Shown: positions 38,902 through 45,521 of the stretch, piece after piece
Layout: every line of letters starts with the position of its first letter
Position numbering within the stretch: the stretch's first letter is position 1
NCBI GenBank assembly: GCA_003584005.1
Contig: QXHL01000023.1
Coordinates: 1-45,636 of the forward strand
Direction of reading: 5' to 3'
From: Alicyclobacillaceae bacterium I2511
Lineage (GTDB): Bacteria > Bacillota > Bacilli > Alicyclobacillales > Alicyclobacillaceae
Length of the DNA stretch: 45,636 nt
Position numbers and translations under genes: made by a program
The notes under the pieces: generated by a model
Database searches by the model: none
Told to the model about the DNA's origin: nothing
The model's input: only the letters and a program-made list of their open reading frames with translations

Positions 38902-39144
38902 CGGAGTCCACAAATGTTAGATTTGATGATTTGGCTATGCTCTTAGGCTGGTAAGGCATTGTGACGAGCGCGGACCTATAGTGATAACGTTTTTCCCGGG
39001 GGGTTCGCGCAAGCGAATTTTTCCTGGTATGATAGGAGTTGTTGCACAATGCTGGGGATGAACAAGTCTGTAAACGGACGATTTTTGGGAGGTTCGCGAA
39101 AAAACGTCGAAATTCCGTGCCATGTCTGGCCTGAGAGCAGAAGA
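38902..39144 (+). promoter_or_regulatory. Probable CRISPR leader
   Basis: This 243-base AT-rich non-coding stretch lies left of the first repeat. The array's degenerate repeats are at the far end, which fixes the leader on this side. It includes GGTTCGCG repeated near 39001 and 39092. No certain promoter was identified. Confidence 0.6.
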
Positions 39145-41094
39145 GTTACTCCGCGGTCTGACACCGCGGCCCCGTTGAAGAGCGTTGGCGTTATCCGCTC
39201 GCGAAGTAAAACGGAGAGTTACTCCGCGGTCTGACACCGCGGCCCCGTTGAAGATCGCAGTCCCTTGCACAAAGGCTACAACGGTACCCACGTTACTCCG
39301 CGGTCTGACACCGCGGCCCCGTTGAAGAATTATACGCCCCTCGTACAGTGGCACGATACCATGCGTTACTCCGCGGTCTGACACCGCGGCCCCGTTGAAG
39401 AAGGATGGGCGGCAATGCCTTGTTAAATCCCGCGAGGGGTTACTCCGCGGTCTGACACCGCGGCCCCGTTGAAGAGTCCGTATAGTAGGTTCTAGTGGAG
39501 TTCCGCACAGAAGGTTACTCCGCGGTCTGACACCGCGGCCCCGTTGAAGAGACATGAAATACGACCTAGTTTATGTAGACGAAGCTCGTTACTCCGCGGT
39601 CTGACACCGCGGCCCCGTTGAAGACTTCAATCACCGCGACCGTATGTGTGATGGAGTTCTCAGGTTACTCCGCGGTCTGACACCGCGGCCCCGTTGAAGA
39701 TTTGTTGGGCCGTAAATCTGTTCACGCCCCTCATGACGTTACTCCGCGGTCTGACACCGCGGCCCCGTTGAAGAGTCCGCTACCCGAAGACGAAGACGAA
39801 GCTAACGAAAGTTACTCCGCGGTCTGACACCGCGGCCCCGTTGAAGAGTAAGAATTTTAGAGCGGCGCGCGGCAGTGTCGGATTATGGTTACTCCGCGGT
39901 CTGACACCGCGGCCCCGTTGAAGACCAACGGAACAAGGCCATTTGCGTCATACGGCTCGAATGTTACTCCGCGGTCTGACACCGCGGCCCCGTTGAAGAA
40001 TCCTACTCATCTCCTTTTGTAGTCTTTATCATGCACGTTACTCCGCGGTCTGACACCGCGGCCCCGTTGAAGAAATAGAGGATGGGGAATGCTGGATTCA
40101 TGAGGGCGTTACTCCGCGGTCTGACACCGCGGCCCCGTTGAAGCAATATCGGGATGACGGATGTGGCGCAAAGCTTTATGTTACTCCGCGGTCTGACACC
40201 GCGGCCCCGTTGAAGCTGCCCAAATGTATAATCCCCAGTGGGGGATAGTTTCCGGTTACTCCGCGGTCTGACACCGCGGCCCCGTTGAAGCGTTATTTTG
40301 GAATCCGCAAATAGAAATTCAATTTTTGTTACTCCGCGGTCTGACACCGCGGCCCCGTTGAAGCCTGAAGTTCGGTTTAAGAACGGCTCTCGCATTCATG
40401 TTACTCCGCGGTCTGACACCGCGGCCCCGTTGAAGCCAACTGTGGTAATCGAATTTTCGACAGCACAGGCAGTTACTCCGCGGTCTGACACCGCGGCCCC
40501 GTTGAAGCAGGGCGTGTTGAATGCCTATGCAGGCGCGCAAAAGGTGTTACTCCGCGGTCTGACACCGCGGCCCCGTTGAAGCTGGCTATTACTATTCTGT
40601 GGCACAACTTGCAGATGCCGTTACTCCGCGGTCTGACACCGCGGCCCCGTTGAAGCGCCCACAGGCAGACTCATTTCGTAATCCGTTAGCCGTTACTCCG
40701 CGGTCTGACACCGCGGCCCCGTTGAAGCGCCCCATAGGTATAGGGAGTCACGCAAGACGTGGAGTTACTCCGCGGTCTGACACCGCGGCCCCGTTGAAGC
40801 TCACCCATCCGATGGGAGCAGCCTATTTCCATGGAGTTACTCCGCGGTCTGACACCGCGGCCCCGTTGAAGCAATGTGACGGCAGCTTGAAAATCATTCC
40901 AAGAACTATGTTACTCCGCGATCTGACACCGCGGCCCCGTTGAAGTCGCTTGGGAGCGTGATTGTGAGAAAGTCTTGGTTGTTGTTACTCCGCGGTCTGA
41001 CACCGCGGCCCCGTTGAAGTGATATCCGAACAGCTGCAAAGACGGGGAATCCGAACAAGTTACTCCGCGGTCTGACACCGCGGCCCCGATGAAG
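39145..41094 (+). CRISPR. CRISPR array, 27 repeats and 26 spacers, no cas genes in window
   Basis: The 36-base repeat starts GTTACTCCGCGGTCTGAC and ends CACCGCGGCCCCGTTGAAG; CCGCGGT and ACCGCGG form a 7-bp stem with loop CTGAC. Spacers are 35-41 bases counted this way. Repeats 1-24 and 26 are identical; repeat 25 (40910) has one change (G to A) and repeat 27 (41059) one (T to A near the 3' end), so the right end is the old end and transcription is left to right. The next base after each repeat is A in repeats 1-13, C in 14-24, T in 25-26 and C in 27, so the repeat is really 37 bases. The 3' tail TTGAAGC resembles class 1 handles, but type cannot be assigned without cas genes. Confidence 0.97.
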
Positions 41095-41265
41095 CGCGTG
41101 CTGCAGTGTTAGAGCAACTGCGCCGATTATGGCGCGTCCGGAGCCATTGGACAGCTTTGGCTCCATCTTTTCAAAGTATTCCGTCCACTTTGCGCCATGA
41201 GCCGGGTGGTTTGACGGCACTGACCAGGGTGAATGGCGCGTTGATATGTCCACAGGATGGTGCAT

Positions 41266-42154: not shown

Positions 42155-42919
42155 TTACTCGGGCTCTACGTTGGATTTTTCCGGGGAAAGTCCCTGGATT
42201 TTTCGCATCGATTCTCCCGTTAACTTGATTTTATACGCGTTGTGGACCAGCCTGTCCAGTATGGCCTCTGCGAGGGTGGGATCGGCCATCACCTGGTGCC
42301 AGCCATCGATGGGGAATTGACTGGCAACTACAGTGGAATGTAGCGCGTTGCGGTCATCGATCACCTCCATCAAGTCATGACATTCTAGAGGCGTGAGCGG
42401 CAGTTGCCCAAAGTCATCCAGAATGAGTACTTCCACTTTGGCGAGTTTCGCTAGGAGTTTTGTGTAGGTCCCATCCCCCTTGGCCATGGAGAGTTCACTG
42501 AGCAGCCGGGTGGTGCGAGCGTACATTGCACTGTGCCCCAAGCGACAGGCGAGATTCCCTAGGGCACAAGTGAGGTAGGTCTTTCCCACTCCGGTGGGGC
42601 CGGTGATGAGAATGTGGTGGTGTGCCGTCATCCACTGACCGGTGACAAAGGAACGCAAGAGAGATTTGTCTAAACCTCGTGGATGGGAGTAATCCACCTC
42701 CTCCCAACAGGCCTGGGGGATTTTCAGATGAGCTGCCTTGAGCAGCCGGGTGAGGCGATGATTCTCCCGACTGCTCCATTCAGCGTCGACCAAGAGGGCA
42801 AGGCGTTCTTCAAAGGACAAACTGGCTGAATCCGGTTGTTCCTGTTGCGTGAGGAGAGCCTGGACCATGCCATGAAGGCGCATTTGTTGCAGGTGTTCCA
42901 GGGTTTGTTCTGTCCACAT
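42155..42919 (-). CDS. istB: IS21 helper ATPase IstB
   Basis: From ATG 42919 (GAGAGGAG upstream) the protein is 254 residues: Walker A ILITGPTGVGKTYLTCALG, Walker B VEVLILDDFGQLPL and the sensor VVASQFPIDGWHQVM. It is an AAA+ DnaC-like ATPase that activates the IstA transposase. The longer open frame to 43156 lacks a ribosome site. Confidence 0.95.
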   Translation of the reverse strand: MWTEQTLEHLQQMRLHGMVQALLTQQEQPDSASLSFEERLALLVDAEWSSRENHRLTRLLKAAHLKIPQACWEEVDYSHPRGLDKSLLRSFVTGQWMTAHHHILITGPTGVGKTYLTCALGNLACRLGHSAMYARTTRLLSELSMAKGDGTYTKLLAKLAKVEVLILDDFGQLPLTPLECHDLMEVIDDRNALHSTVVASQFPIDGWHQVMADPTLAEAILDRLVHNAYKIKLTGESMRKIQGLSPEKSNVEPE

Positions 42920-43026
42920 CTGTGAAAGCTCCTCTCGTCTAGCGCTTTGAGTGAGAATCCGTAGGACCTCGGGAGCCCCTGAACTTTCACCTCGGCCCCC
43001 AGAAGGTCTTTTGCGTGTGAGGACGG

Positions 43027-43422
43027 TTACTCTTTCCCGGAGGTGTGGTTGTCTTGAGCTTGCCAATAGGCCCGTGCCCGCCAACTGGCCAGCACATCCG
43101 CAGCTTGGCACAACACATCGGCTTCCCGTGCAAAGGGCGTTTTGAGCTTCGCCCACGCTCGCAAAGCATATTCAACCTCCGAAAACCCCCACTCCTGTAC
43201 AGAAACTGGTGGACTGCCTGGAGGACCTTTCGTCATTGCGCGGGCTATGGCAGGCCAGTCCACAGAAATGTGTGGAAAACGTTCTTTCACCTGGTCTTGC
43301 AACCCAGGTGGAATGCGAAACCCGGTTCCTAGGGGGGCCAAGACGATTTGTCGACTCCGTCCCTGCTCGTATAGAGTGGCTACCAGCTGAGCACTATTTT
43401 TACGCCAACGGACAAAGGCCAT
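43027..43422 (-). CDS. Accessory ORF inside the IS21 element
   Basis: This 131-residue protein starts MAFVRWRKNSAQLVATLYEQ and contains GLQDQVKERFPHISVDWPAI and EVEYALRAWAKLKTPFAREA. It lies between istA and istB on the same strand. Similar small ORFs occur in some IS21-like elements, but their role is unknown; it may be a regulator or passenger. The 304 bases between it and istA hold a frame of 75 codons (43463-43690) that I do not trust. Confidence 0.65.
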   Translation of the reverse strand: MAFVRWRKNSAQLVATLYEQGRSRQIVLAPLGTGFRIPPGLQDQVKERFPHISVDWPAIARAMTKGPPGSPPVSVQEWGFSEVEYALRAWAKLKTPFAREADVLCQAADVLASWRARAYWQAQDNHTSGKE

Positions 43423-43726
43423 CAGAAAACTCCCTTTCAGATCGGCGGGGTGCCATCAGATGTCATGACCAGCCCCCTGCATGGATGTTTCTACCGGACC
43501 CTTTCACCCGGTTGGGGTGAGAACCCGCAAATCGGAGCGTCTCCAGTATCGGCGGGGCTCGAATGGACAACTGCCACGGAGAGTCCACTGAATGCGCCGT
43601 TTCTTTCACGTCGTCACAGACCTTGAGGGGTGTTTCCGTGTTCATAGCGTTCATACGTACCTTCCCCTTGCGAACATGCGTAGAATTCATAGGTCCAAAG
43701 AGAGCTTTTTCGCGGATAAATCTGCA

Positions 43727-45253
43727 TCAGTCTGCGAAGTAGGACGGACCCCGTAAGTTCCCGTGATGAATCAGAGGAACGTCTTTCACAGGTGGATCCT
43801 GGGCCACTTGATCCAGGCCCTTTTCTAAAATGGATTTCATGCTCCGCCAACTGAGAATTCGAAACGCGAGGGCCCTTTTTGCGGCAGCTTCCATGCGCTC
43901 GACAGGATACATATCCGCTAGCCGAAGCATCCCCCGGCACGTGCGGTAGGCTTGTTCTTTGTACGGACGAGATTCGAGCACGGCCTGAAGGAGAGCCCGG
44001 GTATAGGGCCCCACGAGTTGGGCGTCGGCTAAAAACTTCTCTGAGGACCACCCCCGCACGACCTTGTGCTGGGGTGCAAGGTGTTCCACAAGCGTGCTGT
44101 AATGGCCACGTCCAGAGACGCGAAGATGGCTGGCCACCCGTTCATTCTTGAAGAATATCTCCACAAGGTGGTCGGTCAGACGCACGTCGACCTTTCGATG
44201 AGCCAGTTGATAAGCAACGCTATAAAAATTAGACTGAACCTGGATGTGGTAATCTGAGGCGACCTTCGCCTTGGACCACTCTGCATAAGCAAAGGATTGT
44301 GCGGGTAAGGGGCGCAGTGCGGGCTTGTCCACCTCAAGGAATAGGCTCCACCGCGTCCCCTCCATTTTTTGAAAGGGTTTGTGATTCAAGTCCGCAATCA
44401 ATTCCCGCAGCACCTTATTGAGTTCTGAAAGGCTGAAGAAGGAACGATTGCGAATTCTCGCCAGTACCTGAGTCTCCACAAATTGGACACCCTTTTCTGC
44501 AGCTGGCTTGTCTTTTGGATGACGGGGACGGGCGGGCAATACGGCCACATGGTAGTATTCTGCCATTTGCTCAAAACCAAGAAACAACTCGGCTTCATAG
44601 CGGGATGGGGTCTTGACGGCCGATCTGAGGTTGTCTGGTACCAAGGCCTCGGGGACTCCCCCTATGAATTCTAAGGTATGACAGACCGCTGCGATGAAAA
44701 AACGAGCTTGTTGAGACGGACAGGCTTCAATATATACGTAGTTGCTCGCTCCGAGGACAGCGACAAAAATTTGAGCCTCCAAGTCTCCTTCCGAGCTCGG
44801 TCGAGTCACCTTCACGGTCGGCCCAGCAAAATCCAAAAAAACCTTTTCGCCCGCCTTGTGAGACTGATGCATGGACACGTCCAGAGACTTTTTCCAGTCT
44901 CGAACCAAGTGACAAAACTGCGAGTAACCGTAGCAAGGTTCACTCCCGTGAGCGGCCACGTACTCCTCCCACAAAAGGGCCAAGGTCACTCCTTTCCTGC
45001 GAAGCTCCTTTTGAATTCGAATCATGTCGAGGGGAGCCCTGAGTTCTTGCGAGGGTGTAGTGGGTGGATACAGGAGTTGTTCCAATGTGGCATCCTCCAA
45101 GTCACTGGGCAAGGGCCAAGAGAGCCCCGACGCCTGAAACCGATACAACAGTTCATCCACCGCAGTGTGGGAGATTGAGAGTGTTCTCCCCACTTGACGC
45201 GAACTCAGTCCGTTCTCATAACGTAGATAGAGCACTTCACGAATCTTGCGCAT
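43727..45253 (-). CDS. istA: IS21 transposase IstA
   Basis: From ATG 45253 (GGAGG upstream) the protein is 508 residues. An N-terminal HTH (KIREVLYLRYENGLSSRQVG, RTLSISHTAV) is followed by the DDE core: VFLDFAGPTVKV, ALVPDNLRSAVKTPSRYEAE and RHPKDKPAAEKGVQFVE with the last Glu. It catalyses cut and joining together with IstB. The reading frame is intact. Confidence 0.95.
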   Translation of the reverse strand: MRKIREVLYLRYENGLSSRQVGRTLSISHTAVDELLYRFQASGLSWPLPSDLEDATLEQLLYPPTTPSQELRAPLDMIRIQKELRRKGVTLALLWEEYVAAHGSEPCYGYSQFCHLVRDWKKSLDVSMHQSHKAGEKVFLDFAGPTVKVTRPSSEGDLEAQIFVAVLGASNYVYIEACPSQQARFFIAAVCHTLEFIGGVPEALVPDNLRSAVKTPSRYEAELFLGFEQMAEYYHVAVLPARPRHPKDKPAAEKGVQFVETQVLARIRNRSFFSLSELNKVLRELIADLNHKPFQKMEGTRWSLFLEVDKPALRPLPAQSFAYAEWSKAKVASDYHIQVQSNFYSVAYQLAHRKVDVRLTDHLVEIFFKNERVASHLRVSGRGHYSTLVEHLAPQHKVVRGWSSEKFLADAQLVGPYTRALLQAVLESRPYKEQAYRTCRGMLRLADMYPVERMEAAAKRALAFRILSWRSMKSILEKGLDQVAQDPPVKDVPLIHHGNLRGPSYFAD

Positions 45254-45521
45254 GGGTAACCTCCGATTCGCCAAAAACAGCACGCCTCCCTGGGGCATTC
45301 ATGACCCCAAAGGATAATGTAGAAGATGGCGGGAATGTACTCCAGTCCCCATACACACTTTTCCAGTTATGGAGTTTCGGAAGGTCCATTAAGAGGGGAT
45401 TAAGCGTGGCAACGTTGGCCAGAATGGAGAGCCACTTTGCGTTAGAATGACTGGCAACTTTGCTTCGGATTGGGTGGCAACTTTGAATCGGTACGGGTGG
45501 CAACTTTCAGGCTCTCCCGCA

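What the first reader, a model, noticed from the sequence alone, without database searches (positions are those of the whole stretch)
39145..41094. CRISPR repeat 3' base switches in blocks: a growth record of the array
Counting the base after each 36-nt repeat gives A for repeats 1-13, C for 14-24, then T, T and C. A random spacer start would not produce 13 A followed by 11 C. The repeat is therefore 37 nt and its last base changed in the leader-proximal repeat, after which every new repeat inherited it. This dates spacers 1-13 as newer than 14-24 and 25-26, and confirms left-to-right polarity together with the two diverged repeats at the right end.
Basis: partly seen in the sequence, partly recalled or inferred. 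Interest (0 to 1): 0.75.

Follow-up and report, generated by a model that had tools for sequence, protein, structure and literature searches.

The report
CRISPR repeat's last base, inherited blockwise
The last letter of this bacterium's CRISPR repeat is copied from repeat to repeat and occasionally switches, so it records the order in which the array grew, and the switching looks like small slips of the enzyme that adds new entries.

Summary
In 35 related arrays (616 repeats) neighbouring repeats agree at base 37 in 529 of 546 junctions, at base 38 in 132, as chance predicts. So the repeat is 37 nt and base 37 is inherited. It is not drawn from the target: one genome with one detected Cas1 has three arrays whose newest base is A, G and C; one spacer follows A in one array and G in another; an exact target of a G-type spacer has C there. 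The leader is on the left, so A is youngest. Block inheritance of repeat variants is in print (PMC2886076, passage). What stands out is the rate: 15 block switches at base 37 against 27 at the other 36 positions together (12 against 17 on a strict count), with too few private changes for clock-like mutation. I infer that Cas1-Cas2 sometimes duplicates 36 instead of 37 nt, capturing a base of the new spacer. No informative founder-spacer target was found to prove this.

The parts
38995..39144 (+). leader on the left of the array; holds GGTTCGCG at 39091-39098, 46 nt before the first repeat
   Evidence: Of 32 family arrays with more than 100 nt upstream held, 31 have GGTTCGCG or AGTTCGCG 46 or 47 nt before the first repeat; L194 has not
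39145..41095 (+). CRISPR array, 27 repeats of 37 nt (36 fixed + 1 variable) and 26 spacers; no cas match among ten proteins scanned between 28.8 and 45.3 kb (the rest of the window was not scanned)
39145..40107 (+). repeats 1-13 with base 37 = A (youngest block) and their spacers
40108..40909 (+). repeats 14-24 with base 37 = C and their spacers
40910..41058 (+). repeats 25-26 with base 37 = T (oldest spacers); repeat 25 has a private G>A at position 12
41059..41095 (+). terminal repeat (position 31 T>A), base 37 = C, no spacer after it
39401..39438 (+). base 37 = A plus spacer 4; the same spacer stands after base 37 = G in a second array of this genome (L029, 15.1-16.8 kb)
   Evidence: 35 nt identical from base 38 on; the far ends differ by 2 nt
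40073..40107 (+). base 37 = A plus spacer 13, founder of the A block: the place of the C-to-A switch
   Evidence: position in the series; no target found in 41 family genomes or by one exact viral scan
40509..40619 (+). spacers 19 and 20 (C block) with the repeat between them; their targets lie on one contig of the sister genome (G001:C22), preceded by TTC (2 mismatches) and TGT (1 mismatch)

Best explanation
This is a CRISPR array whose repeat family is found beside type I-G (Csx17/Csb1/Csb2) genes. The repeat unit is 37 nt. SHOWN: the 37th base is copied from the neighbouring repeat into each new repeat, so it stays constant in blocks and switches in a heritable way; it is not re-drawn from the target at each acquisition; the leader is on the left, so A is younger than C, which is younger than T. 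INFERRED: the switches arise at integration. Cas1-Cas2 finds the spacer-side cut by a distance ruler. Usually it cuts after base 37, copying whatever base is there. In roughly 3% of acquisitions it cuts after base 36, so the first base of the incoming prespacer (or a PAM base left on it) becomes the new 37th base and is copied from then on. Positions 1-36 are held fixed by their role in the hairpin, handle and ruler; base 37 tolerates any letter.
For: Inheritance: neighbour agreement is 529/546 at base 37 but 132/546 at base 38 (25.2% expected) and 141/546 at base -1, in 35 arrays without their terminal repeats. One Cas1 was found in the genome, whose three arrays have newest base 37 = A, G and C. 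The same spacer follows A and G. L099 spacer 2 (base 37 = G) matches its own genome exactly in five places, each with C at -1 (in L147 the place overlaps the 5S rRNA gene). L190 spacer 16 (base 37 = C) has a 1-mismatch target with T at -1. Origin at integration: 15 block switches and 1 private change at base 37, against 27 and 16 summed over the other 36 positions. If changes came at a steady clock rate, only 6.5% should be block switches; 15 or more of 16 has P = 2e-17. Counting single-repeat runs at the ends of arrays as private, it is 12 and 4 against 17 and 26, P = 8e-12. Rate: 15 in 546 junctions, 2.7% (95% interval 1.5-4.5%). Precedent, passages seen: for a type I-G Cas4/1 in vitro, 60-70% of spacer-side integrations were at the correct site against 80-90% leader-side, and PAM 'slipping' was suggested (preprint PMC10274657). 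[quoted passage not shown]
Against: No informative target was found for a spacer that founds a block. The one founder with targets (L093 spacer 28, 4 or more mismatches) has C both at base 37 and at target -1, which says little because the motif before targets often ends in C. Blocks also occur at other positions (14, 4, 1, 16 and others), so integration-linked change is not unique to base 37; the other positions too show more block switches than a clock gives, 27 of 43. The clock calculation assumes steady growth without spacer loss or repeat homogenisation. Two of three G-type spacers with targets have G at target -1 (L195 #20, L193 #8); chance would give two or more of three about one time in six (my arithmetic), but it leaves room for some influence of the target. 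No excess at base 38 that would show 38-nt slips.
Confidence: 0.62

Rival explanations
1. Plain point mutation at base 37 of the leader-proximal repeat, then copied by ordinary repeat duplication; base 37 switches often only because nothing constrains it.
For: Explains blocks with no new mechanism; block switches also occur at position 14 and others; the copying principle is in print (PMC2886076, passage).
Against: Steady mutation should leave about 14 private changes in internal repeats for every block switch; base 37 has 15 block switches and 1 private change, or 12 and 4 on the strict count. Of seven block switches away from C, five go to G, two to A and none to T (my count from the runs), although C-to-T transitions are usually the commonest mutation (general knowledge).
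Confidence: 0.25
2. Base 37 is a PAM base taken from the target at each acquisition, as reported for type I-E.
For: The commonest base 37 (C) equals the last base of the TTC before three exact targets (L196 #30 and #23, L029 #8). PMC8482600 suggests a PAM-derived C for some I-C repeats (passages). Of 16 spacers with targets at 4 or fewer mismatches, 10 agree at -1 (hand count).
Against: Three arrays under one detected Cas1 hold A, G and C in long blocks; the same spacer follows A and G. The other 6 of 16 disagree: L099 #2 (0 mismatches, G against C), window #20 (1, C against T), L190 #16 (1, C against T), L189 #20 (2, C against G), L029 #3 (4, C against T), L094 #13 (4, C against G). Eight of the 10 agreements are C with C, expected from the TTC alone.
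Confidence: 0.04
3. Recombination or gene conversion between arrays moved repeats with other last bases into this one.
For: Some arrays (L189, L200) show alternating variants at other positions, as rearrangement would give.
Against: In this genome all 27 copies of the window repeat (up to 3 mismatches) are in this one array, and the two C199 arrays differ from it inside the repeat, so no donor with this repeat and another last base was found; positions 1-36 are unchanged across the C-to-A border. The genome is incomplete, and the sister genome does have C- and G-type copies.
Confidence: 0.05

Closest known systems
Stretches of repeat variants in E. coli/Salmonella arrays (PMC2886076; passages seen)
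   Same: Variants come in stretches because the new repeat copies its neighbour
   Different: There it is a remark about repeat variants in general; here one boundary base switches far more often than any other position and its rate is measured
PAM-derived last repeat base of type I-E (PMC3338789; abstract and passages seen)
   Different: In I-E it is re-drawn from each target and resets at the next event; here it persists in blocks and can disagree with the target
Type I-G/I-U CRISPR-Cas (PMC9638904, PMC10274657; passages seen)
   Same: Csx17, Csb1 and Csb2 beside arrays of this repeat family in a relative, Csb2 in this genome, Cas4 and Cas1; TTC before three exact targets, within the published TTN
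   Different: Cas1 matches the I-C model and is separate from Cas4; type III-A csm genes lie between two arrays in this genome; the repeat is 37 nt, not 36
Spacer-side ruler of type II-A Cas1-Cas2 (PMC6895254; passages seen)
   Same: A distance-based second cut; off-by-one shifts exchange a base between repeat and spacer
   Different: Shown there with engineered repeats; here inferred from natural arrays

Membership tests
CRISPR array with leader-end growth | regular repeats with unique spacers of similar size | tested here: met
   27 repeats, spacers 34-40 nt after base 37
CRISPR array with leader-end growth | conserved leader at one end and degenerate repeat at the other | tested here: met
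   GGTTCGCG 46 nt before repeat 1; it or AGTTCGCG stands at 46-47 nt in 31 of 32 family arrays with upstream sequence, window included; terminal repeat with T>A right
Type I-G CRISPR-Cas | Csx17, Csb1, Csb2 effector genes with this repeat family | tested here: inconclusive
   All three beside two arrays of a family relative (L096) and Csb2 in this genome on contig C199; Csx17 and Csb1 were not sought in this genome; no cas match in the ten window proteins scanned
Type I-G CRISPR-Cas | TTN PAM | tested here: met
   TTN before 8 of 16 spacer targets with 4 or fewer mismatches (1 in 16 expected by chance): TTC 4, TTG 3, TTT 1; exceptions CAC twice, TCC twice, TGT, TAT, TAC, TCG. Of four exact targets three have TTC, one CAC
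PAM-derived last repeat base (type I-E manner) | last repeat base equals target -1 base at each acquisition | tested here: not met
   Same spacer after A and G; 6 of 16 spacers disagree with target -1, among them an exact one
Block-inherited repeat variant | runs of one variant in spacer order | tested here: met
   4 runs in 27; 0 of 200,000 shuffles as few
Integrase spacer-side slip | switched base matches the target of the founding spacer | tested here: inconclusive
   Founder L093 #28 has targets but is uninformative; none found for window #13, L193 #11, L191 #9, L096 #5
Integrase spacer-side slip | 36-nt and 37-nt duplications seen in new acquisitions | not testable with these tools
   needs an acquisition experiment

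The most novel reading that the evidence does not exclude
The last repeat base is a natural one-letter log of off-by-one slips by the Cas1-Cas2 (Cas4) integrase: about 3% of acquisitions duplicate 36 instead of 37 nt, capture a base of the incoming DNA, and later copies carry it. Type I-E (re-drawn every time) and strictly fixed repeats would then be the two ends of one scale, and integrase fidelity could be read from genomes alone.
Probability: 0.5. Interest if true: 0.6.

Novelty: new variant of a known kind. Interest (0 to 1): 0.45.

Why it matters
It gives a marker that orders spacers within an array without comparing strains, and it bears on a suggestion in print that the C ending some I-C repeats comes from the PAM (PMC8482600, passages seen): in these arrays, served by a Cas1 of the I-C model, the last base is inherited instead. 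If the slip model holds, the fidelity of the spacer-side cut can be counted in wild genomes. It also warns that array callers may set this repeat at 36 or 37 nt depending on the array.

Tried and rejected
Leader base -1 as the source of base 37: equal in 9 of 16 arrays (permutation p 0.031), but 14 of 31 with more arrays (p 0.059); dropped. Spacer length differs between the A and C blocks of the window (p 0.049) but not between C and other bases in the family (p 0.32); dropped. Slips to 38 nt: agreement at base 38 is 132/546 (24.2%) against 25.2% expected; no sign. Controls: an array of another repeat beside the best I-C-model Cas1 hit (L085, 56 repeats) and one more of another repeat (L086, 25 repeats) have a constant last base, so the switching is not general. 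Targets: 'phages' searched with the window array, both L029 arrays and the large L096 array gave one weak match (86% over 36 nt, E 0.5); 'plasmids' with the window array gave none. Searches used a pattern with wrong spacing; their near-empty results mean nothing; with the corrected pattern (checked) replaced 52, and the class-wide question of 49 was not asked again. Whole-genome target searches covered 132 spacers (26, 42, 28 and 36) over 41 family genomes; the others of the 581 were compared only with fetched loci. Dropped from the target count: one match that is the spacer's own array behind a degenerate repeat (L087 #11) and matches with 5 or more mismatches (among them window #25, #14 and #3). 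Dropped from all junction counts: the last repeat of each array. Paper searches; no listing showed a report of a hypervariable inherited last repeat base, but most subscription journals are not held.

Full report
OBSERVATION. The array at 39145-41094 has 27 copies of a 36-nt repeat with two substitutions in 972 sites. The next base reads A x13, C x11, T, T, C. The series has 4 runs; 0 of 200,000 shuffles had 4 or fewer.

SETTING. The window array is the only place in this genome with this repeat, allowing 3 mismatches; ten proteins scanned between 28.8 and 45.3 kb have no cas match, and an IS21-type pair of genes lies to the right. On contig C199 the same genome has cas4, cas1 (I-C model, over its cut-off), cas2, csm1-csm5 of type III-A with a weak csm6 match, and Csb2 of type I-G, with two more arrays of a related repeat. 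One Cas1 was found in the genome; it is 98% complete in 232 contigs, so a second could be missed. A same-genus genome (G001; its contig C362 has the length and repeat places of DAHWFY010000096.1, a Bacillota MAG) has the same repeat.

THE FAMILY. I fetched stretches round Cas1 hits and round other repeat copies in relatives and read 35 arrays with 616 repeats; more arrays exist, since one search lists only the first places. Without terminal repeats, neighbouring repeats agree at base 37 in 529 of 546 junctions, at base 38 in 132, at base 39 in 137, at base -1 in 141 and at base -2 in 147. So the repeat ends at base 37. Nine of 35 arrays show at least one change outside the terminal repeat: the window, L029 (G9 A3 G9 C1), L087, L092, L093, L096 (G5 C80), L191, L193 and L195; in L092 and L093 it rests on one repeat. 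C is by far the commonest base: 495 of 581.

NOT FROM THE TARGET. (a) Three arrays under one detected Cas1 have newest base A, G and C. (b) Window spacer 4 (after A) and spacer 8 of the L029 G-type array share 35 nt starting exactly at base 38. (c) L099 spacer 2 (after G) matches its own genome exactly in five places, all with C at -1; in L147 the place overlaps the 5S rRNA gene. Across 16 spacers with targets at 4 or fewer mismatches, 10 agree with base 37 at -1 and 6 do not; at 2 or fewer mismatches it is 6 and 4 (hand count). Eight of the ten agreements are C with C, which a motif ending in C gives anyway; the other two are G with G. Exact targets of three C-type spacers are preceded by TTC (L196 #23 and #30, L029 #8). 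So the usual base 37 looks like the last PAM base, yet it is not re-drawn.

POLARITY. The leader lies on the left: GGTTCGCG (AGTTCGCG in L086) stands 46 or 47 nt before the first repeat in the window and in 30 more of the 32 arrays with more than 100 nt upstream; L194 lacks it. The repeat at the right end is degenerate. Hence A is the youngest block. The blocks alone would not say which end is young.

WHY IT SWITCHES. After setting apart private single changes, base 37 has 15 block switches and 1 private change; the other 36 positions together have 27 and 16, with at most 5 block switches at one position. If single-repeat runs at array ends are also counted as private, the figures are 12 and 4 against 17 and 26. 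If changes fell at random in time, internal repeats would collect most of them: with these array sizes only 6.5% would be block switches; P = 2e-17 for base 37, or 8e-12 on the strict count. The other positions also show an excess, 27 of 43. This assumes steady growth and no homogenisation. So changes go with the act of duplication, most of all at the border base. An off-by-one spacer-side cut gives this: if 36 nt are duplicated, the new repeat's next base is the new spacer's own, and later 37-nt duplications copy it. The visible rate is 15 in 546 junctions, 2.7% (1.5-4.5%). In vitro work on a type I-G Cas4/1 reports 60-70% correct spacer-side against 80-90% leader-side integration and possible PAM slipping (preprint PMC10274657, passages). 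In type II-A a ruler sets the second cut and altered repeats exchange an end base (PMC6895254, passages). The direct test, targets of founder spacers, could not be completed.

AGAINST. Changes at other positions also come in blocks. Two of three G-type spacers with targets have G at -1; for L193 spacer 8 the TTC stands one base further out, so base 37 could belong to that spacer. Arrays of two other repeats (L085, L086) have a constant last base, so the behaviour is tied to this repeat family or its adaptation genes; 26 of the 35 arrays of the family show no change either.

KNOWN WORK. Copying of neighbouring repeat variants: PMC2886076 (passages). PAM-derived last base in I-E: PMC3338789 (abstract and passages). 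A suggestion of the same for I-C, and I-G PAMs TTN, TTC and others: PMC8482600 (passages). Type I-G 8-nt handle and TTN PAM: PMC9638904 (passages). S. agalactiae internal repeats are 98.5% of one type: PMC4466440 (passages). No listing in the searches named showed a hypervariable inherited last base; they do not cover most subscription journals.

VERDICT. Real, correctly read, and a clear example of a known principle, with one unexpected feature: the border base switches far more often than the rest of the repeat, in a way that points to the integrase.

Noticed in passing
L099 (G009:C138:11706-11889) and L144-L148: A spacer that matches its own genome exactly in five places; in L147 the match overlaps the end of the 5S rRNA gene: self-targeting, with CAC instead of TTN before it.
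   Followed up: partly
G004:C15 (L230-L232), IMGVR_UViG_2731957596_000001: A 47,254-base contig of the same length as a viral contig record, matched by spacers of several arrays of relatives, with TTC before the two exact matches.
   Followed up: partly
G001:C22 (L113, L114): 31.5-kb contig of the sister genome holding targets of window spacers 19 and 20; perhaps a phage or prophage, genes not annotated.
   Followed up: no
L029:7413-16988: Type III-A csm genes lie between two arrays of the I-G repeat family, whose first repeat and leader share a 98% identical 214-nt stretch; one adaptation set may serve both effectors.
   Followed up: no
G001:C362:8016-8051 (L092, L030): A lone repeat copy with three extra bases before its last AAG stands about 2.2 kb from the three-repeat array; genes between not annotated.
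   Followed up: no
L200, position 14; L189, positions 1, 4 and 19: Repeat variants alternate instead of forming simple blocks, as if units had been rearranged.
   Followed up: no
window 42155-45298: IstB-like and Mu-transposase-like genes, as in an IS21-type element, shortly after the array.
   Followed up: no
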